NCBI RefSeq assembly: GCF_000186245.1
Contig: NC_014935.1
Location: 1,426,001 to 1,490,000, forward strand
Direction: 5' to 3'
Source of the DNA: Nitratifractor salsuginis DSM 16511
Lineage (GTDB): Bacteria; Campylobacterota; Campylobacteria; Campylobacterales; Sulfurovaceae
Length of the DNA: 64,000 nt
Shown here: positions 6,509 to 38,263 of the stretch, in pieces
Position numbering within the stretch: the stretch's first letter is position 1
How the letters are laid out: each line of letters begins with the position of its first letter
The notes under the pieces: generated by a model
The model's database searches: none
Seen by the model: the letters and a program-made list of their open reading frames with translations, nothing else
Told to the model about the DNA's origin: nothing
Position numbers and translations under genes: made by a program

Positions 6509-6548
6509 TCGGTTACTCGGTTGCTCGGTTTCTCAATTGCTCGGTTGT
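6509..6548. repeat. Octamer tandem repeat TCGGTTGC, five copies
   Basis: Five contiguous 8-mers (TCGGTTAC, TCGGTTGC, TCGGTTTC, TCAATTGC, TCGGTTGT). Read on the minus strand they are GAGCAACC, the same octamer as at 33104-33135 and 22457-22472. Because 8 is not a multiple of 3, the repeat is read in shifting codons and forms the last 12 codons and stop of the helicase gene. Confidence 0.85.
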
Positions 6549-8714
6549 TCCAAGTTTGATAATCCTCGCATCCTCCCGGCTCTCCAACCATTCGAAGAGT
6601 TTGCCGAAGGGCTCGTTGGGTTCCAGGGTCGAGCGGTCTCCGATCATCAGAAGCTTGCTCCTTGCCCGAGTCATCGCGACATTGAGCCGCCTGGGATCGG
6701 AGACGAAGCCGACACTTTGGGCCAGATTGCTCCGGACGAAAGAGATGAGGATCACCTCCTTCTCCCTCCCCTGAAAGCCGTCCACACTCTTGACCTCCAC
6801 ATCCGGAAACTCTTCCAGGAGGCGACGCAGGAGTTTGACCTGGGCCAGATAGGGGGTGATGATCCCGATCTGGGCGGGGGCGATCCCGCAGGCGACAAGC
6901 TCAGTCACCCAGCGAAGGAGATGGCCCGCCTCTGTGGGATTTTCATAGGAAGTGGAACGCTCCGGTAGGTGTTCGGAGGCTTCCATCTCCGATGTATCGG
7001 CGAAGACCACCGGGAAGGAGGGATCGAGGCAAGGATCTTCGGGGGGCTTTTCGACGGGAAGTGTGCGTCGGGCCACCGAAGGATCGGCGACCAATGCGCC
7101 GTCATACATCAAGCGGTTGGGGAAATCCATAATCGTTTCGTGCATCCGGTATTGGACCCGTAGCATCGTAGCGGGAACTAGCTTGCGGGAGATCAAGCGT
7201 TCGAAGAGGGATCGTTTCAGGATCTCCAGATCGCTCAACACTGTGGGAGGGAGCTGTCGGTGATCCCCCGCCAAGACGCCGCGCGGCGCACGCAGGAGCG
7301 GCAGCAGGGTCGAGGGCTCGATCTGTTGACTCCCCTCGTCCACCACCGCCAAATCGAAGCTCATCCCCTCCAAAGCGTCGGAGCCCACCATCGAATTGGT
7401 CGCCAGCACCACATCCGCCGCCTCCAGGAGCCGGCTGATCGTAGCGCTCTCCAGGCTCCTCAAGCGCTCAAAGGCCTCCTCGGTCTTACTATCCTCTTCG
7501 ATCCATCGGGCCATAGAGCGGATCGTCTCGGCGCTCACTCCCCGGGAGCTTCGTCCCTCTTTGGCCAGTTTGAGCACCCGATCCCGGCTCATCCCCCGCA
7601 GCCTCGCCGGGGTGGGTTTGCTGTATCGGGCTCGTTCTCGGGCGGCCGTTTCCGCCTGGCGCTGAAGCTCCCGGATCTCCTGATACTCCGGCGCCTCCGT
7701 CAGTTGACGCATCAGGCTGAAGCGCTCCAGACTCGAATCGATCCGCGCAGGATGGCCCACCCGGATCAGGCGTAAATCTCCATCGCCTGCCAACTTCTCC
7801 AGAAGATTATCCACCGCCACATTGGAATCGGCCGTCGCCAAAATATGCATTCCTTTCGAAGCGTGGGCTTGGATCACCCGGGTGAGGGTCGTGGTCTTTC
7901 CCGTACCCGGAGGCCCGTGGATCAGGAAAAGCTCTTCCATCCCCAGACTGCGCCGAAGGGCTTCGAGCTGGGGTTCGTTGAGCCCTTCCACCTCTTCAAT
8001 CTTTGCCATAGGGGCTTCGCCGCAGGGCTCCAGCTCCAGCACGATGTCCCGAAGGCGCCGATAGGGATCGGGAAGGTGGCGCATCGACTCCAGATTCTTC
8101 TCCATACGCTTGAAGGTGACATCGTTGACGAAGAGATCCAGACGGACCTCCTCTTTCAGTGCCCACTTCGGAGGAACCTGGCTGAAGGCCAGCTCGATGT
8201 AGTTGCGCCCTACCCCCATCACCGTGGCGCTCAGATCGCTCTTGAGCGGTTCGCCCCGGCTCACCAGGACGATGTCGCCGCCGGAGATCTCCGTCTCGAT
8301 CCTACGGTCCCGTCCGTAACGGACCAGATGCAGATCGAAAAGAGTCCCGGCCCGTCGCCCCCTCAAACCCAGGATCGCCCGCCCGAAACTCTCGAGCTCC
8401 CTGCCGCTGAAGCGCTTGATCTCTTCGATACGGCTACGCCGCTCCGCCTCCCGCTCCAACTCGATGAGCTGCCGGTACTCTTCGATGTAGTCGTGGATAC
8501 GGCGGATACGATGACGCCGCCGCTCATCGGGAATCCACTCGGGCGGCACCTTGGGGACCAGGCCCCTTTTGAGGAGGTAGAGGACAAACCCGTCCGCTTC
8601 CCAGGTCCGGGAAATGTTGCCGGGCTTGATACCGTAGCGTCTGAGGAGACGCTCCCGCTTTTCCGCCGGATAGTCGATGGGTAGGGTCAGGTAGATCGCA
8701 GAGGGTTTGGCCAT
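6513..8714 (-). CDS. Superfamily 1B DNA/RNA helicase (Upf1/IGHMBP2-like)
   Basis: A 733-residue cytosolic ATPase: N-terminal beta-barrel/stalk region, then RecA1 with Walker A GPPGTGKTT, the DEGSQ motif II box and GDHRQLPPT (motif III). RecA2 follows with QYRMH, SVDGFQGRE and VAMTRARSK (motifs IV-VI). This is the arrangement of bacterial Upf1-like helicases; polarity and substrate cannot be told. The ATG at 8714 (MAKPSAIYLTLP) is preferred over an in-frame upstream start because GGAG precedes it. The C-terminal TTEQLRNRATE is encoded by the octamer repeat and is not expected in homologues. Confidence 0.9.
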   Translation of the reverse strand: MAKPSAIYLTLPIDYPAEKRERLLRRYGIKPGNISRTWEADGFVLYLLKRGLVPKVPPEWIPDERRRHRIRRIHDYIEEYRQLIELEREAERRSRIEEIKRFSGRELESFGRAILGLRGRRAGTLFDLHLVRYGRDRRIETEISGGDIVLVSRGEPLKSDLSATVMGVGRNYIELAFSQVPPKWALKEEVRLDLFVNDVTFKRMEKNLESMRHLPDPYRRLRDIVLELEPCGEAPMAKIEEVEGLNEPQLEALRRSLGMEELFLIHGPPGTGKTTTLTRVIQAHASKGMHILATADSNVAVDNLLEKLAGDGDLRLIRVGHPARIDSSLERFSLMRQLTEAPEYQEIRELQRQAETAARERARYSKPTPARLRGMSRDRVLKLAKEGRSSRGVSAETIRSMARWIEEDSKTEEAFERLRSLESATISRLLEAADVVLATNSMVGSDALEGMSFDLAVVDEGSQQIEPSTLLPLLRAPRGVLAGDHRQLPPTVLSDLEILKRSLFERLISRKLVPATMLRVQYRMHETIMDFPNRLMYDGALVADPSVARRTLPVEKPPEDPCLDPSFPVVFADTSEMEASEHLPERSTSYENPTEAGHLLRWVTELVACGIAPAQIGIITPYLAQVKLLRRLLEEFPDVEVKSVDGFQGREKEVILISFVRSNLAQSVGFVSDPRRLNVAMTRARSKLLMIGDRSTLEPNEPFGKLFEWLESREDARIIKLGTTEQLRNRATE

Positions 8715-8722
8715 AGTCTCTC

Positions 8723-9271
8723 CTAAGGGCGGATCTCGATGGGGGTGCCGGGGTCGACCGCCTGCCAAATCTCATCCATATCGCCGTTGCTCACCGCGAT
8801 GCAACCGGCCGTCCAGTAGAAGCGTTGGCGGATAATGGAGAGCCAGCCGAACCAGTTGGGCTGGCCGTGGATCATGATGGCTCCGCCGGGATTGACCCCC
8901 AACCGTTTGGCCCGCGCTTTGTCGGTACTGTTGGGATAGCTGACGTGAATCGCCCGATAGTAGCTGCTGTCGGCTTTCTTGAAGTCGAGGGTATAGTTCC
9001 CCTCCGGCGTCTTCTGGTCATGTTCCCGGCGCTTGGGCCCGACGGGATGTTTGCCCAGGGCGATATGATACTCCCGGTAGGGCTTGCCATTCCGTAAGAG
9101 ATAGAGTTTTCGTTCCGATTTGATGATCAGAACCTTCTGAGCTTTGGGGATCGAGGGTTTCTTGGAGACAGAAAGGCTCTGCACCGTCTCGGAGACCGCT
9201 TTGAAGGCCGAAGGCCCGGCGGCAAAGATCAGACTGCCGAAAGCGAAGAGTAGCAATAAACGTAGCGTCAT
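8723..9271 (-). CDS. Secreted L,D-transpeptidase (YkuD domain)
   Basis: A 182-residue protein with an N-terminal signal peptide (MTLRLLLLFAFGSLIFA) followed by a YkuD domain. The active-site block shows MIHGQPN and TAGCIAVSNGD with the catalytic Cys, the usual HG...GC arrangement. Family members cross-link or trim peptidoglycan peptides in the periplasm. Its start overlaps the preceding ATP-grasp gene by 4 bp (ATGA), so it is translationally coupled. Whether it is a transpeptidase or a carboxypeptidase like Helicobacter Csd6 cannot be decided from sequence. Confidence 0.88.
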   Translation of the reverse strand: MTLRLLLLFAFGSLIFAAGPSAFKAVSETVQSLSVSKKPSIPKAQKVLIIKSERKLYLLRNGKPYREYHIALGKHPVGPKRREHDQKTPEGNYTLDFKKADSSYYRAIHVSYPNSTDKARAKRLGVNPGGAIMIHGQPNWFGWLSIIRQRFYWTAGCIAVSNGDMDEIWQAVDPGTPIEIRP

Positions 9272-10449
9272 CGGATGATGTGCCCTACGAATTTGGAGAG
9301 GTTGTCGAGGATCAAACCGCCGCGGCGATAGCCCAGCCCGCAGGATTCATAGGCATAGAAGAGGCCGGCCTGGTAGCGATGGCCCTCCACATCCTGTGGA
9401 AGATCCACATACTCCTGATAGATCATCGGATAGTTCCCGTACTCCCCCGGAATATCGGCGACGACCGTCTCACCGTCACTCTCGAGGATCGCCACATTCC
9501 CCCCTTCCCTGCCGAAGAGGGGTTTGCGCACCTGCATCTTGCCCGGGATCGGTTTGAGCGAAGTTTCCAGCAAAAGGGGATGTCCGGGATAGAGGTCCCA
9601 AAGCACTTTGAGGATCCCCTTGCTCTGGAACATCAGCGTATAGGCGGGATTGAAGATGATCGCCTTTTGATTGCGCACGATCTGAGTCAGCAGCATCGCC
9701 AGATCGGGCTCTTCGAGGGCGATATCCTCCCAGGGGATGAGTTTGAACCAGAGTTCGTAATTGACATCCCGGTAAAAGATCCCCTCCTCGGCATCGAATT
9801 CGATCTCGTCGATGTAGGCAAACCCCGTCTCGAAACCCGCTTCGTCGGCAATGTACTGCAGCAGCCGGACCGTATTCTCCTCTTCGGGATTGCCGCGGAC
9901 CGAGGTGAAGAGAAAGCGCCATCCTTCGTAGCGCTCTTTGAAAGCTTCGACACTCTCTTCCAGGGTCACGATTCGCTTGAAATTCTCCAAAAGGGCATCG
10001 TAGACGACATTGAACTGGGCCGCTTCATCCAAATCGTTCTTTTTGAGGATCGCCCACTGGACGATGGCGGTCTCGAAAAGGGCCGTCGGGGTATCGGCAT
10101 TGAATTCCAGGAGCTTGATCGGTTTTCCATCGATCCCACCCGCCAGATCGAAACGGCCGTAGAGGTGCCAGTGTACTTCACTCTCCCAACTCTCCCTGAT
10201 CAGTTCGACGAGGTTGAAGGGGATCCCGATCTCGTGGAAGAGGTTGTGCTCGATGACATACTCCCCCGCCGCCACATACATATCGTAGAGCTCGTTGCCG
10301 GCCCGGTAGTAAGCCTCGGCCTCTTCGGGGCTCACCTGCACCAGCACATCGGCCAGGTAGGGGGTCTCGTCGCTGTCGGTGTGCCAGACAAAACCCAGGG
10401 ATTCGAGATAGGCCTTGTCGAGGGGTTCTACGGGAAGCAGGGAAACCAT
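9268..10449 (-). CDS. ATP-grasp ligase of the glutathionylspermidine synthase family (YgiC/YjfC-like)
   Basis: The 393-residue protein corresponds to the synthetase half of glutathionylspermidine synthase, without the amidase domain. Visible family features are the LLEFNADTPT block, an acidic FTSV...DEIEF central region, the NPAYTLMFQSKGIL segment and a late KPLFGREGGNV motif. Such proteins are ATP-dependent amide ligases; the substrate of stand-alone bacterial ones is generally unknown. The ATG at 10449 is chosen because the longer frame would run through the upstream lipoprotein gene. It is wedged between that gene (1 bp gap) and an L,D-transpeptidase (4 bp overlap). Confidence 0.87.
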   Translation of the reverse strand: MVSLLPVEPLDKAYLESLGFVWHTDSDETPYLADVLVQVSPEEAEAYYRAGNELYDMYVAAGEYVIEHNLFHEIGIPFNLVELIRESWESEVHWHLYGRFDLAGGIDGKPIKLLEFNADTPTALFETAIVQWAILKKNDLDEAAQFNVVYDALLENFKRIVTLEESVEAFKERYEGWRFLFTSVRGNPEEENTVRLLQYIADEAGFETGFAYIDEIEFDAEEGIFYRDVNYELWFKLIPWEDIALEEPDLAMLLTQIVRNQKAIIFNPAYTLMFQSKGILKVLWDLYPGHPLLLETSLKPIPGKMQVRKPLFGREGGNVAILESDGETVVADIPGEYGNYPMIYQEYVDLPQDVEGHRYQAGLFYAYESCGLGYRRGGLILDNLSKFVGHIIR

Positions 10450-10450
10450 C

Positions 10451-11053
10451 TCATCCTCCAAAGAAGCCGCTACGGCCGCTGCGGCCACTGCGACCGCCGA
10501 AGAAACCGCTTCGCCGAGTCGTGTTCCGCCGTGTAGCTGTCGAGCCTTTTTTGAAGCTGTTGACACTGCGGTTATAAGCAGAAGGGGTCTTGTAACCGGC
10601 CCGACGGTTTTGCCGGTAATTGGGGTTGTTGAAGAGTTTGCTGCCGATCCAGGAGCCGATGATGGCTCCCGCGGCGCTGGCCAGGATCGCTTCACCGAGA
10701 CTCAAGCCGCCCTGTTGGGCCACCTGTGCCCCTTCGGGACTCGTCAAAGGTGAGGTCCCGTTCTCGATCTTGGCCTCCTCCTTTTTGATCAATGCATCCA
10801 TCTCGGCCCGGGTCAGGACCTTTTCGGTCCCGTCGAGCTTTTTGAGGATGATGCGGGTCTCCTTGGCGGGAAACTCTTCGGCGATCTTGTACTTGCCCGG
10901 TTTGACCTCTTCGATCACGACGAAAGCGTTCTTCTCCTGCGGCTGGACCGCCTGCTGCCCTTCATTGCGCTGCTGACAAGCACTCAGGCCTACGGCCAAT
11001 AGTGCACCCAGCCCCAGGGCACCGATCTGTGAAGCTTTTTTGATGTAACGCAT
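10451..11053 (-). CDS. UPF0323-type lipoprotein with Arg-Ser-Gly / Phe-Phe-Gly-Gly tail
   Basis: A 200-residue exported lipoprotein: MRYIKKASQ signal, lipobox AVGLSAC with the lipidated Cys near residue 26. A mixed alpha/beta domain is followed by a glycine-rich hydrophobic segment (ILASAAGAIIGSWIG, near 124-138). The basic, Asn/Arg/Gly-rich tail ends with two FFGG motifs flanking three RSG units. It resembles the UPF0323 lipoproteins of Campylobacter and Helicobacter. It heads the coupled set with the ATP-grasp ligase and the L,D-transpeptidase. Function is unknown; the repetitive C-terminus makes it a possible ligase substrate (inference). Confidence 0.82.
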   Translation of the reverse strand: MRYIKKASQIGALGLGALLAVGLSACQQRNEGQQAVQPQEKNAFVVIEEVKPGKYKIAEEFPAKETRIILKKLDGTEKVLTRAEMDALIKKEEAKIENGTSPLTSPEGAQVAQQGGLSLGEAILASAAGAIIGSWIGSKLFNNPNYRQNRRAGYKTPSAYNRSVNSFKKGSTATRRNTTRRSGFFGGRSGRSGRSGFFGG

Positions 11054-11166: not shown

Positions 11167-12342
11167 TCAATCCATCTGCTTGCGCAGGAAGGTGGGCACG
11201 TCGAGGATATCCTCGTCCAGAGGTTCTCCTCCGACGATCTTGCGCCCCTGATAGGTATGATAGGGGTTGGGGGTGTTGGCACTCTGCGAACCCAGGAGAT
11301 CGGAGGCTTGCTGCACCTTCTCCGCCTGGGAGGGAGCGGAGACCGCTTCGGGCTCTTCGAAGCCGGTAGCGATGATGGTAATTTTGACCTGATCGATCTC
11401 CAGATTGGAGTCGGTCGTGGTACCGAAGATGACGCTGGCATCCTCGTCGGCATGCTCCTCGATGATCTCCATCGCCTCGGAGATCTGCAGGATGGGATAA
11501 TCGGGGTGGATATGGAAATGGACCAGGACTCCTTTGGCCCCGTTGATGGAGATGTTGTCCAGCAACGGAGAGTCGATGGCCGCTTTGGCCGCATCGTAGG
11601 CGGCGTTGGCACCGGTGCTGCTGCCCGAACCCATCAGGGCGAGGCCGCGATGGCTCATGACGGTCTTGACGTCGGCGAAGTCGAGGTTGATATCGTTGGG
11701 GCCGTGAGAGAGGATGACATTGGAGATCCCCGATACCGCCTGGCAAAGCACATCGTCCACGAGACGGAAGCTCTCTTTAATGCCGAGGTTTTTCTCCACG
11801 ATCGAGAGCAGCCGTTCATTGGGGATCACGATAATGGAATCACTTTCGCGTTTGAGCTCCTCCAGGCCGCCTTTGGCCAGTTTCTGGCGTTTGCGTCCCT
11901 CGAACTTGAAGGGAGTGGTCACAACGGAGACAGTCAGCGCTCCGACCTCTTTGGCCGCCTGGGCGATGATGGGAGCCGCTCCCGTCCCGGTACCGCCGCC
12001 GAGTCCGGCAGAGATGAAGACGATATCGGCCCCCGCCAGGGTGTCTTTGATTTCGCTGAAGCTCTCCAGCGCGGCTTCCCGGCCGATCTCCGGCTTCATA
12101 CCGGCACCCAGCCCACGGGTCGCGTTGGATCCCAACTGCAACTTGATGGGAGCCATAGAAGAATCGAGGGCCTGGGCATCGGTATTGGCAACGATTAGGT
12201 CGATCCCCTTGACATTTTCGGAGATCATATGGTTGATCATATTGCCGCCACCGCCACCTACGCCGATGGCTTTGATCTTCGCACCCTCCAGTTCCGAACT
12301 GCCCGCTGTTGTCGTTTCGACTTCGATTTCAAAGTTTTCCAT
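11167..12342 (-). CDS. ftsZ: Cell division GTPase FtsZ
   Basis: Bacterial tubulin forming the cytokinetic ring. The 391-residue protein has the N-terminal GVGGGGGNM loop, the tubulin signature GGGTGTGAAP, the synergy-loop region NDINLDFADVK and a linker. The C-terminal peptide LDVPTFLRKQMD is the usual docking tail for FtsA. It lies 27 bp downstream of ftsA in the order ppiD-ftsA-ftsZ. Confidence 0.98.
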   Translation of the reverse strand: MENFEIEVETTTAGSSELEGAKIKAIGVGGGGGNMINHMISENVKGIDLIVANTDAQALDSSMAPIKLQLGSNATRGLGAGMKPEIGREAALESFSEIKDTLAGADIVFISAGLGGGTGTGAAPIIAQAAKEVGALTVSVVTTPFKFEGRKRQKLAKGGLEELKRESDSIIVIPNERLLSIVEKNLGIKESFRLVDDVLCQAVSGISNVILSHGPNDINLDFADVKTVMSHRGLALMGSGSSTGANAAYDAAKAAIDSPLLDNISINGAKGVLVHFHIHPDYPILQISEAMEIIEEHADEDASVIFGTTTDSNLEIDQVKITIIATGFEEPEAVSAPSQAEKVQQASDLLGSQSANTPNPYHTYQGRKIVGGEPLDEDILDVPTFLRKQMD

Positions 12343-12369
12343 AAGTCTCTCTCCCCCTTTTTATGGTTT

Positions 12370-13782
12370 TTAGAATAGTTGTTTCGCCCAATTGACGAAT
12401 CGGCTGAAAGGATTTCCTTCACGTTTTTTGCCGGCTGCGGCAAAGAGATCCCCTTCCTGATCGAGATCCAGAGTGTTCTGCTGGATCCCTTCACCCAGGT
12501 CGAGCCCGAGATCGATAGGCTCTCTCTTCTGCTTCAGCTCTTTGGGAGCCGTCTCTTTTTTGTCGAACTCGGCGATGTCGGTCACATTGGTCGTCTGGAT
12601 CTCTTTGTGATGCAGAAGAGTTTTGCTGTGATCGATCTCGTACTGGGTATGCTCTCCCGCTTTATAGAGCAGAAGACCGATCACCGTCGAGAAGGAAGGA
12701 TCCTTCAACTCCTCATACATCCCCCCGAGCTCTCTCGGGTAACCGATGCGCACCGGCATCCCGTGGAAAATCGCCTGGGCCAGCTCCCGAATCCCTTTGA
12801 GCTTTGTCAGCCCGCCGGTCAGGACGATCCCTGAACCGATCTGCTCTCTAAGCGCGCTCTTGTCCAGGGATTTGGAAAGGATCATCAACGCCTCTTCGAC
12901 TCGGGCCAGGATCACGCTGTGGGCGATCTCCAGGGAGATGGTATTGCGGTTTTCGCTGTCCCCGATCACCGGCAATTCGATGGATTCGCTGGACTTCTCC
13001 AAGAGATTCCCATGGCGGATCTTTACCTTCTCGGCTGTCTCCAGCGGCGTATGGAGTGCCATCGAGAGGTCGTTGGTGATGTGGTTGGACCCGACGGCCA
13101 GGAAATCGTTGTAGCGGATGGAGTTGCCGATATGAACGATCAGGCTGCTGGTCTGGCCGCCCATATCGATGACGCAGACTCCCAGCTCCCGCTCGTCCTC
13201 ACCCATCACCGCCAAAGCCGAAGCGTAACTGTTGAGAACGATCCCGTCGATCTCCAGGCCGGCCGAACGCACCGCCTTCGTCAAATTGCTCAGCGCCGAC
13301 TTCTGGGTGATGATGATGTTGACATCCACTTCCATCCGGCTGGCGTTCATCCCGTAGGGATCCTCGATGAAATCCTGCTCATCGACTTTGAAGTTGTAGG
13401 GGAGGACATGGATCACTTCGAACTCGTTGGGGATGTTGGCGTTGTAAAGCGCCGTGTCCATCACCCGTTTGATCTCTTTGATGCTGATGTCCTGATGGGG
13501 AATGTTGACGATGCCGGTAGAGTTGAGGCTCCGGGCATAGGCGTTGGAGATGGAGACCGTGGCGTTGGAGATATTTTTTCCGGCGATCCGCCGGGCGTCG
13601 GTGACCGCCTTTTTGATCGATTTGGATGCCAGCTCGATGTTGGTGATGATCCCCTTTTTGACTCCCTGGGAGCGGACGACGCCGTGCCCGGTCACTGTGA
13701 TACTGCCGTCATCCGCCACTTCGGCAATGACAGCGGCAATTTTTGTTGAACCGATGTCAATCGCCAGAATCGTCTCTGCCAA
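12370..13782 (-). CDS. ftsA: Cell division protein FtsA
   Basis: Actin-like ATPase that tethers FtsZ to the membrane. The 470-residue sequence begins with the phosphate-1 motif AIDIGSTK and has the SHS2/1C insert region around residues 85-165. The phosphate-2 block is VCVIDMGGQTSS and the adenosine motif is IVLTGGLTKLKGI. It ends with an amphipathic membrane-targeting helix (FSRFVNWAKQLF). A 100-residue acidic linker separates the last domain from that helix. It lies 1 bp downstream of the ppiD-like gene. Confidence 0.97.
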   Translation of the reverse strand: MAETILAIDIGSTKIAAVIAEVADDGSITVTGHGVVRSQGVKKGIITNIELASKSIKKAVTDARRIAGKNISNATVSISNAYARSLNSTGIVNIPHQDISIKEIKRVMDTALYNANIPNEFEVIHVLPYNFKVDEQDFIEDPYGMNASRMEVDVNIIITQKSALSNLTKAVRSAGLEIDGIVLNSYASALAVMGEDERELGVCVIDMGGQTSSLIVHIGNSIRYNDFLAVGSNHITNDLSMALHTPLETAEKVKIRHGNLLEKSSESIELPVIGDSENRNTISLEIAHSVILARVEEALMILSKSLDKSALREQIGSGIVLTGGLTKLKGIRELAQAIFHGMPVRIGYPRELGGMYEELKDPSFSTVIGLLLYKAGEHTQYEIDHSKTLLHHKEIQTTNVTDIAEFDKKETAPKELKQKREPIDLGLDLGEGIQQNTLDLDQEGDLFAAAGKKREGNPFSRFVNWAKQLF

Positions 13783-36991: not shown

Positions 36992-38263
36992 TCATTGTGC
37001 CTTTTTGAGGTGCATGATCTGGTCGTAGCCGTAGATGTCGGGAAAGAATTGCACACCGCCCCCCTGGGAGACATAGGCGGTAAAGTAGCCCACGTGTACC
37101 GGGATCGGCTCTTTGAGGCTCACATTGTGGCGTTTCCAACTCTTGAGCTCCTCCTCGACCTGAGTCCAATCTTTGCTCAGATAGCCGTGCTGTGCCAGAT
37201 AACGCAGCATTTCGATGGGGCGGGCGAGACGGATGCAGCCGTGGCTGTAAGCGCGGATCTTGCGTTTGAAGAGGCTCTTGGCGGGCGTATCGTGCATATA
37301 GACCGAATTGCCGTTGGGGAAGAGGAACTTGACCCGCCCCAGGGCATTGCCTTTGGCCGGAAGCTGGATCAGTTTGTAGGGCAGATCCTTTTTCTTCCAC
37401 TCGGGGCGCAGGTATTTGCGCCAGGGGACACTGCGGGGGTTGACCGGCGTGGTGTCGAGATCGTAACTGCGCAGGACGATCATACGCTTGTGTTTGAAGT
37501 AGTTGGGGTCCCGAAGCAGATGGGGGATTTCTTCGGCCCGGGCGATGTTGTCGGGCACATTCCAGGTGGGGTTGAGGACCACATATTTCATCGCGGCGCT
37601 GAAGATCGGTGTCTGCCAACTCTTTTTGCCGACAACAACATCACTGACGAAGGCGAGCCGGCCGTTCTCGAAGAAACGGACCCGAAACTCCGGGATGTTG
37701 ACGAGGAAGTAGGTTTGCCAATGGGTAGGATCGGGGTCCATCAGTTTGGAGCGCTCCAGGCTCAAGCGGACTTTGCGGCGCTGCGCCTCACTCAGGCCGC
37801 CGCCGTGCCAAACCGAGAGGAGACGGTCGAACTGGGGCGTAGGCGGTATGTAGGGTTTGAGAATATCCTCGACGCGCCGCCCATCACGTAGCTGCGCCAT
37901 CAGCGACGAAGCGGAAACCGACTGGAGGTAGGGGGTGAACTTGGTGTGGATCTTGCGGGCTTCACGTTCCCGCTGCGCCGCTTCGAAACTGGGCAGATCG
38001 ATGCAGCTGTTGGCCAGGTTTTTGGTATAGCCGACCAGCAAGCGGGAGAGGAGACGGGAATCACGGGTCTGCAGATACTTTTGATAGATCGGTTCGAGTC
38101 CGCAGAGGGAGGCGTAGCGGTCCGTCCCTAGAATATGCAGAAATTCCCGTTTCTGATCGGAACTCCACCCCTGGGCATCCCCGAAATGCGGGCCGCCCGT
38201 ACAGCCTGCCAGCCACAGCAACATCCCACCGGCCAACAGGCCTCTGATCCATCTATAGTTCAT
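36992..38263 (-). CDS. Lipid-anchored L,D-transpeptidase (YcbB/LdtD-like)
   Basis: A 423-residue protein with lipobox LLWLAGC (Cys near residue 21), an alpha-helical N-terminal region and a C-terminal YkuD domain. The domain shows LNPTWNVPDNIA, YMHDTPAKSLF and the active site RAYSHGCIRLARP. The length and layout match YcbB-type enzymes that form 3-3 cross-links, but no clear peptidoglycan-binding repeat is visible. It precedes the hydrolase gene by 3 bp, probably in an operon with murF downstream. Confidence 0.9.
   Translation of the reverse strand: MNYRWIRGLLAGGMLLWLAGCTGGPHFGDAQGWSSDQKREFLHILGTDRYASLCGLEPIYQKYLQTRDSRLLSRLLVGYTKNLANSCIDLPSFEAAQREREARKIHTKFTPYLQSVSASSLMAQLRDGRRVEDILKPYIPPTPQFDRLLSVWHGGGLSEAQRRKVRLSLERSKLMDPDPTHWQTYFLVNIPEFRVRFFENGRLAFVSDVVVGKKSWQTPIFSAAMKYVVLNPTWNVPDNIARAEEIPHLLRDPNYFKHKRMIVLRSYDLDTTPVNPRSVPWRKYLRPEWKKKDLPYKLIQLPAKGNALGRVKFLFPNGNSVYMHDTPAKSLFKRKIRAYSHGCIRLARPIEMLRYLAQHGYLSKDWTQVEEELKSWKRHNVSLKEPIPVHVGYFTAYVSQGGGVQFFPDIYGYDQIMHLKKAQ

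What the first reader, a model, noticed from the sequence alone, without database searches (positions are those of the whole stretch)
8723..11053. Coupled set: lipoprotein with RSG/FFGG tail, ATP-grasp ligase, L,D-transpeptidase
Three genes overlap or abut by 1-4 bp. The ligase belongs to the glutathionylspermidine synthase-like amide ligases but lacks the amidase half. The lipoprotein ends in a repetitive Gly/Arg/Phe tail that could be the acceptor or product of such a ligase. The third gene handles peptidoglycan peptides. E. coli ygiB-ygiC has the same lipoprotein-plus-ligase pattern. Together they suggest an envelope protein-tagging or cell-wall linking pathway.
Basis: inference. Interest (0 to 1): 0.62.

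Follow-up and report, generated by a model that had tools for sequence, protein, structure and literature searches.

The report
Membrane lipoprotein tail and YgiC-type ligase
Two neighbouring genes, a membrane lipoprotein with an unusual Gly/Phe tail and an enzyme of the type that joins peptides to polyamines, have been inherited together across a whole bacterial phylum, and a similar tail sits next to the related E. coli enzymes, which makes the tail the best candidate for the enzyme's unknown natural target.

Summary
The three ORFs are real and tightly packed, but they are a conserved pair plus a recent neighbour. The lipoprotein (UPF0323/NF003146 family) and the stand-alone PF03738 ligase co-occur almost perfectly: of 298 Campylobacterota genomes 270 have both, 25 neither, 3 the lipoprotein only, none the ligase only. 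The L,D-transpeptidase adjoins them only in the window's own genus, and the genome has nine such genes. The ligase matches E. coli YgiC/YjfC in fold and catalytic residues; these are annotated as peptide-spermidine ligases whose physiological substrate I found no report of. The lipoprotein tail has two conserved islands, [KR]SGFFG and a C-terminal [FY]G[GSA], in an otherwise variable tail almost free of acidic residues. The same layout (RGGFG then xGG) sits next to 53 of 55 YgiC-type ligase loci from Pseudomonadota, including E. coli YgiB and YjfM, whose bodies are unrelated. Bifunctional glutathionylspermidine synthetases lack it (0 of 6). Best reading: the ligase amidates the lipoprotein's C-terminus, probably with a polyamine, as an envelope protein modification. 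This is inference: co-folding showed no docking, and where the tail lies is unsettled.

The parts
10451..11053 (-). Tail-bearing lipoprotein, UPF0323/PRK04081 (NF003146) family; homologue of the Cj0371/HP0232 family (names from prior knowledge)
   Evidence: translation; NF003146 252.2 bits (cut-off 194)
10976..10987 (-). Lipobox LSAC; Cys26 invariant in 44 aligned relatives
10631..10708 (-). Gly-zipper hydrophobic segment (residues 116-141); K/R-rich, nearly acid-free tail follows
10493..10513 (-). Internal tail island RSGFFGG (residues 181-187)
10454..10474 (-). C-terminal island RSGFFGG* (residues 194-200), proposed site whose carboxylate the ligase activates; its GGAGGA codons double as Shine-Dalgarno of the ligase gene
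9268..10449 (-). Stand-alone ATP-grasp carboxylate-amine ligase, YgiC/YjfC type (PF03738), 393 aa
8723..9271 (-). L,D-transpeptidase (YkuD) with 4-bp overlap; genus-specific neighbour, not judged part of the conserved system

Best explanation
The lipoprotein and the ligase form one substrate-enzyme pair. The cytosolic ATP-grasp ligase recognises the lipoprotein's disordered tail through the [KR]SGFFG island, phosphorylates the terminal Gly (or Ser/Ala) carboxylate of the [FY]G[GSA] end with ATP, and couples it to an amine, most likely a polyamine such as spermidine, giving a C-terminally amidated, extra-cationic tail. It would do so before or during export, or from the cytosol if the tail stays inside. 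The L,D-transpeptidase is not part of this. SHOWN by computation: family, fold and catalytic residues of the ligase; near-perfect co-inheritance; the conserved two-island tail, recurring on unrelated proteins beside the same ligases; scarcity of any other carboxylate in the tail. INFERRED: that the tail is the substrate, that the C-terminus is the site, that the amine is a polyamine, and the physiological role (envelope or chemotaxis-related).
For: Co-inheritance: 270 both / 25 neither / 3 lipoprotein only / 0 ligase only in 298 Campylobacterota; of the three, one lipoprotein is cut by a contig end (G231) and one is a weak partial hit (G085, E=5.5e-5). The pair is jointly absent from single members of genera whose other members have both (g5, g13, g17, g21, g27), implying repeated joint loss. 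Tail logo on 124 non-redundant tails: K/R 3.0, S 3.2, G 3.7, F 3.8, F 3.9, G 2.8 bits for the internal island and 2.1, 3.8, 3.3 bits for the last three residues, against 1.0 for random tail columns. Of 195 distinct lipoproteins the last residue is G in 133, S in 53, A in 8; penultimate G in 176; F/Y at -3 in 158; acidic residues 8 of 5850 in the last 30 versus 16.8% in the body. YgiB ends RGGFG...RSMGG and YjfM ends RGGYG...HWGG. In Pseudomonadota 46 of 55 stand-alone YgiC-type loci have a tail gene immediately upstream and 7 more have one elsewhere in the locus or ending in Glu; background 19 of 2716 ORFs, about half of them those same genes; bifunctional GspSA 0 of 6. GspS positions R316, D318, E330, N332, D334, E391, K498, K533, R538, Q568, R598 are invariant in 81 YgiC-type ligases and 7 GspSA, while the positions I recall as contacting glutathione (S335, S337, C338) are changed. 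Foldseek top hits YjfC 7uk6 and YgiC 7uk8. RefSeq names YgiC and YjfC peptide--spermidine ligases, after Pederick 2023, cited in PMC12568646. Polyamine supply: nspC in 296 of 298 genomes.
Against: No biochemical evidence for any lipoprotein substrate. AlphaFold2 on a tail-ligase fusion left the tail disordered, pLDDT below 50, with no docking; the fused geometry may have hindered it. The C-terminus is not always Gly: Ser in 27%, Asn-Ala/Ser in one genus (g19), Glu in one Pseudomonadota tail. A cytosolic ATP enzyme and an exported lipoprotein need a topology explanation: the hydrophobic segment is marginal (Kyte-Doolittle 1.45; 30 of 193 reach 1.6), AlphaFold2 breaks it into two short helices at low confidence, HP0232 is listed among H. 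pylori vesicle proteins (PMC13136172), and some short tail proteins have only an N-terminal anchor. The tail regular expression was drawn up after seeing the sequences.
Confidence: 0.5

Rival explanations
1. The ligase makes a small peptide-polyamine metabolite, and the tail protein is a binding partner, localiser or sensor that docks the ligase at the membrane through its tail without being modified.
For: YgiC/YjfC are annotated as peptide--spermidine ligases, and by my recollection of Pederick 2023 act on short peptides in vitro. The internal island is at least as conserved as the C-terminus, as a docking motif would be. Cj0371 is reported to bind the CheV receiver domain (PMC6104132), so the protein can have binding roles of its own.
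Against: Does not explain why the chain end is fixed to [FY]G[GSA], why acidic residues are excluded from the tail, or why the end resembles a Gly-terminated peptide substrate.
Confidence: 0.28
2. The ligase modifies Lys or Arg side chains of the tail with a carboxylate metabolite (for example glutamate), instead of the C-terminus.
For: The tail is Lys/Arg-rich (net +8.7 after the segment), and the enzyme class joins carboxylates to amines.
Against: Lys/Arg positions other than the one before SGFF are not conserved, whereas the C-terminal three residues are. GspS-type enzymes activate the peptide carboxylate (established for GspS).
Confidence: 0.08
3. One reading: a three-gene envelope tagging or cell-wall linking pathway in which the L,D-transpeptidase joins the tagged lipoprotein to peptidoglycan.
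For: 4-bp overlap with the ligase in the window; adjacency kept in other genomes of the genus.
Against: Third gene not beside the pair elsewhere in the family or phylum; nine YkuD genes in the genome; only weak similarity to the LdtF/DpaA model (60.8 versus cut-off 365).
Confidence: 0.04
4. The Gly-Gly end is a by-product of the downstream Shine-Dalgarno sequence (GGAGGA) and has no protein-level meaning.
For: 58% of Gly-Gly ends next to a ligase gene use GGAGG.
Against: 42% use other Gly codons; 12 of 22 lipoproteins not counted as adjacent to the ligase still end Gly-Gly, and 20 of 22 end in Gly plus G, S or A; the internal island cannot be explained this way.
Confidence: 0.02

Closest known systems
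E. coli YgiB-YgiC and YjfM-YjfC (DUF1190 protein + peptide--spermidine ligase; structures 7uk6, 7uk7, 7uk8, 7uka)
   Same: Tail gene directly upstream of a stand-alone PF03738 ligase; ligase 31-32% identical, same fold and catalytic residues; tail with a [KR]GG[FY]G / [KR]SGFFG island and an xGG end.
   Different: The lipoprotein body is UPF0323, not DUF1190: profile comparison matches only the Gly-zipper segment. Internal island SGFFG instead of GGFG. No PspA/DUF350 genes next to the window pair, unlike yjfM-yjfC.
Campylobacter jejuni Cj0371 / Helicobacter pylori HP0232 (UPF0323)
   Same: Same lipoprotein family by NF003146; loci from Campylobacter and Helicobacter carry the same tail next to the ligase.
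   Different: The papers read treat Cj0371 as a chemotaxis/virulence-associated protein and do not mention the ligase gene.
Bifunctional glutathionylspermidine synthetase/amidase (GspSA) and trypanothione synthetase
   Same: Same ATP-grasp fold; catalytic residues shared with GspSA.
   Different: Window enzyme lacks the amidase half and has changed glutathione-site residues; GspSA genes have no tail-bearing neighbour.
PspA-associated operons with ATP-grasp ligase, DUF350 and DUF1190 (PMC11237479)
   Same: Published gene-neighbourhood link of this ligase type with DUF1190 proteins and polyamine metabolism.
   Different: The passages read do not describe the tail motif or tail modification and do not cover UPF0323.

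Membership tests
PF03738 GSP_synth / YgiC-YjfC-type stand-alone ligase | Full-length match to the synthetase domain above cut-off | tested here: met
   410.9 bits, cut-off 29.3, profile 2-371 of 371
PF03738 GSP_synth / YgiC-YjfC-type stand-alone ligase | ATP-grasp catalytic residues conserved | tested here: met
   R99, D101, E115, N117, K277, K309, R375 invariant
PF03738 GSP_synth / YgiC-YjfC-type stand-alone ligase | Peptide-spermidine ligase activity | not testable with these tools
   Needs assay; activity is reported for the E. coli homologues only
Bifunctional GspSA | N-terminal amidase domain fused to the synthetase | tested here: not met
   393 aa, single PF03738 domain; NF007801 100.3 bits versus cut-off 882
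UPF0323 / PRK04081 lipoprotein (NF003146) | Model match above curated cut-off | tested here: met
   252.2 bits versus 194
DUF1190 (PF06693; YgiB/YjfM) | Pfam match | tested here: not met
   No Pfam hit for the lipoprotein; profile comparison matches only the hydrophobic segment, Prob 48. Works like, but is not a member
YkuD L,D-transpeptidase | PF03734 match with HG...GC motif | tested here: met
   84.5 bits versus 23.4; MIHGQ...TAGCIAV in sequence
LdtF/DpaA/YafK (NF040599) | Model match above curated cut-off | tested here: not met
   60.8 versus 365

The most novel reading that the evidence does not exclude
A short C-terminal signal ([KR][SG]G[FY][FG]G, a disordered Ser/Gly linker, then often an aromatic or other hydrophobic residue followed by Gly-Gly) marks otherwise unrelated envelope proteins (UPF0323, DUF1190 and several short unnamed membrane proteins) for C-terminal polyamination by YgiC-family ligases, a protein-tagging system spread over Campylobacterota and Pseudomonadota and present twice in E. 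coli.
Probability: 0.4. Interest if true: 0.75.

Novelty: new variant of a known kind. Interest (0 to 1): 0.56.

Why it matters
The physiological substrate of the YgiC/YjfC ligases is, as far as I could find, unreported. The shared tail gives a concrete, cheap test in E. coli K-12 (mass of the YgiB and YjfM C-termini with and without ygiC and yjfC). A positive result would mean a new bacterial C-terminal protein modification, present in most Campylobacterota (including Campylobacter and Helicobacter) and up to about a fifth of sampled Pseudomonadota.

Tried and rejected
(1) Three-gene system: L,D-transpeptidase adjacency is confined to the genus. (2) Gly-Gly as Shine-Dalgarno artefact: rejected by codon choice and non-adjacent genes. 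(3) UPF0323 as a divergent DUF1190: not supported; only the Gly-zipper segment aligns. (4) AlphaFold2 of an in-frame tail-ligase fusion, stop read as Gly, 47-row alignment: ligase folded, tail disordered, no docking. (5) AlphaFold2 of the lipoprotein: small strand-helix domain at residues 42-98, disordered tail, no PDB match. (6) Polyamine synthesis as a discriminating co-occurrence: nspC is nearly universal, so uninformative. (7) A firm claim that the tail is cytosolic: charge pattern, Cj0371-eGFP fluorescence and CheV binding favour it, but marginal hydrophobicity, the vesicle proteome and singly anchored tail proteins do not; left open. (8) Pederick 2023, Sui 2012 and a 2009 amidoligase paper were not held, so prior proposals of YgiB or YjfM as substrates cannot be excluded.

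Full report
WHAT IS THERE. The window lies in a closed 2,101,285-bp Campylobacterota genome. The nearest named ligase relative is a Nitratifractor MAG at 87% identity; the length matches my recollection of Nitratifractor salsuginis DSM 16511. Three minus-strand genes are packed together: a lipoprotein (10451-11053), a ligase (true ATG at 10449, 9268-10449) and an L,D-transpeptidase (8723-9271), with a 1-bp gap and a 4-bp overlap. The ligase is a full-length PF03738 protein without an amidase half (410.9 bits); the third gene is YkuD (84.5 bits). The lipoprotein has no Pfam domain but exceeds the cut-off of NF003146/PRK04081 (252.2 versus 194), the UPF0323 family to which, by prior knowledge, Cj0371 and HP0232 belong.

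A PAIR, NOT A TRIO. In 298 Campylobacterota genomes the lipoprotein family occurs in 273 and the ligase in 270. Comparing the two lists, every ligase genome has the lipoprotein and 25 lack both. Of the three lipoprotein-only genomes, G231's gene is cut by a contig end and G085's hit is weak and partial; only G211 looks real. Both genes are missing together from single members of genera g5, g13, g17, g21 and g27 whose other members have both, which implies repeated joint loss. Of the distinct loci read, 109 have the two genes adjacent (ligase start within -30 to +130 nt of the lipoprotein end). The L,D-transpeptidase adjoins them only in the window's genus; the genome has nine YkuD genes.

THE TAIL. 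After a Gly-zipper hydrophobic segment the lipoprotein continues as a Ser/Gly/Lys-rich stretch. Across 195 distinct homologues the last 30 residues hold 8 acidic residues in 5850 positions, against 16.8% in the body. Two islands stand out on 124 non-redundant tails: [KR]SGFFG (2.8-3.9 bits, in motif-centred alignment) and the C-terminal [FY]G[GSA] (2.1, 3.8 and 3.3 bits), against 1.0 for random tail columns. The internal island was found in all 131 lipoproteins of the first set. The final Gly codons also form a ribosome-binding site, but 42% of adjacent Gly-Gly ends use codons that spoil it, and lipoproteins not adjacent to the ligase keep the same end.

THE SAME TAIL ELSEWHERE. E. coli YgiB ends [31 protein letters not shown] and YjfM ends TVSRGGYGRSSSARGHWGG; both genes sit directly upstream of ygiC and yjfC, which RefSeq calls peptide--spermidine ligases. 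PF03738 occurs in 61 of 299 sampled Pseudomonadota genomes. Of 55 stand-alone YgiC-type loci, counting both E. coli loci and Thiolinea, 46 have a tail-bearing gene immediately upstream. Six more have one elsewhere in the locus (L264, L272, L302, L303, L310, L313) and L284 has one that ends in Glu; L267 and L282 have none. The same filter hits 19 of 2716 other ORFs, about half of them the nearby tail genes just listed. None of six bifunctional GspSA loci has one. Caveats: some loci are close relatives and the motif was defined after inspection. The carriers are not all one family: of the ten scanned, five match DUF1190, several short ones have no family, and UPF0323 matches DUF1190 only at the hydrophobic segment.

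THE ENZYME. Residues at GspS positions 316, 318, 330, 332, 334, 391, 498, 533, 538, 568 and 598 are identical in 28 ligases of the first group (Campylobacterota, YgiC, YjfC), 53 Pseudomonadota ligases and 7 GspSA. S335 and S337 are Thr in every YgiC-type enzyme, and C338 is lost; that these contact glutathione is my recollection of the GspS structure. The predicted fold has YjfC and YgiC as top PDB hits. So the chemistry of activating a peptide carboxylate and attaching it to an amine is expected to be kept, with a changed peptide pocket.

MECHANISM. An ATP-grasp ligase of this type needs a carboxylate. The tail offers essentially one, the C-terminus, and that end is conserved as a short Gly-terminated peptide. 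I therefore propose that the ligase amidates the lipoprotein C-terminus, most likely with a polyamine (nspC, a polyamine-synthesis gene, is in 296 of 298 genomes), with the internal island as recognition site. The substrate identity, the site and the amine are inferred. Compartment is the weak point. The net charge rises from -6.4 before the hydrophobic segment to +8.7 after it and does so in 193 of 193 proteins; a Cj0371-eGFP fusion made without the stop codon fluoresces at the poles (PMC4944492); and Cj0371 binds the cytoplasmic CheV receiver domain (PMC6104132). These favour a cytosolic tail. But the segment is only marginally hydrophobic, AlphaFold2 breaks it into two short helices at low confidence, HP0232 appears in a vesicle proteome (PMC13136172), and some short tail proteins have only an N-terminal anchor. 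Modification before export would serve either topology.

WHAT IS KNOWN. The ligase-DUF1190 gene association with PspA and polyamine genes is published (PMC11237479), and YgiC/YjfC activity and structures are published (Pederick 2023, cited in PMC12568646; that paper is not held). In the held literature I found no description of the shared tail or of a protein substrate, but I could not read the primary enzymology papers.

VERDICT. The finding gives a testable substrate hypothesis for a family whose physiological target I found no report of; it is not proof.

Noticed in passing
window 11167-13782 (-): ftsA and ftsZ lie directly upstream of the lipoprotein on the same strand, so in this genome the pair follows the cell-division genes; conservation of that arrangement elsewhere was not examined.
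   Followed up: no
window 6513-8768 (-): Large superfamily-1 helicase (AAA_11 + AAA_12, UPF1/IGHMBP2-like) immediately downstream of the L,D-transpeptidase.
   Followed up: no
window 37196-37714 (-): A second YkuD (L,D-transpeptidase) domain inside the window; the genome has nine in all, many for a 2.1-Mb genome.
   Followed up: no
L082 (G121 region): Lipoprotein whose tail reading frame appears shifted right after the SGFF island (ends SGFFWRRKFF), the only one of 195 without a small terminal residue; sequencing error or real loss not determined.
   Followed up: partly
L264, L302, L303, L310: Pseudomonadota loci in which a tail-bearing gene lies 4-6 kb from the ligase on the opposite strand instead of upstream; in L264 it is a DUF1190 protein.
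   Followed up: partly
L231 (Thiolinea disciformis): A gammaproteobacterium carries the Campylobacterota-type pair (ligase 53% identical, UPF0323-like lipoprotein with RSGFFGG tail), suggesting horizontal transfer.
   Followed up: partly
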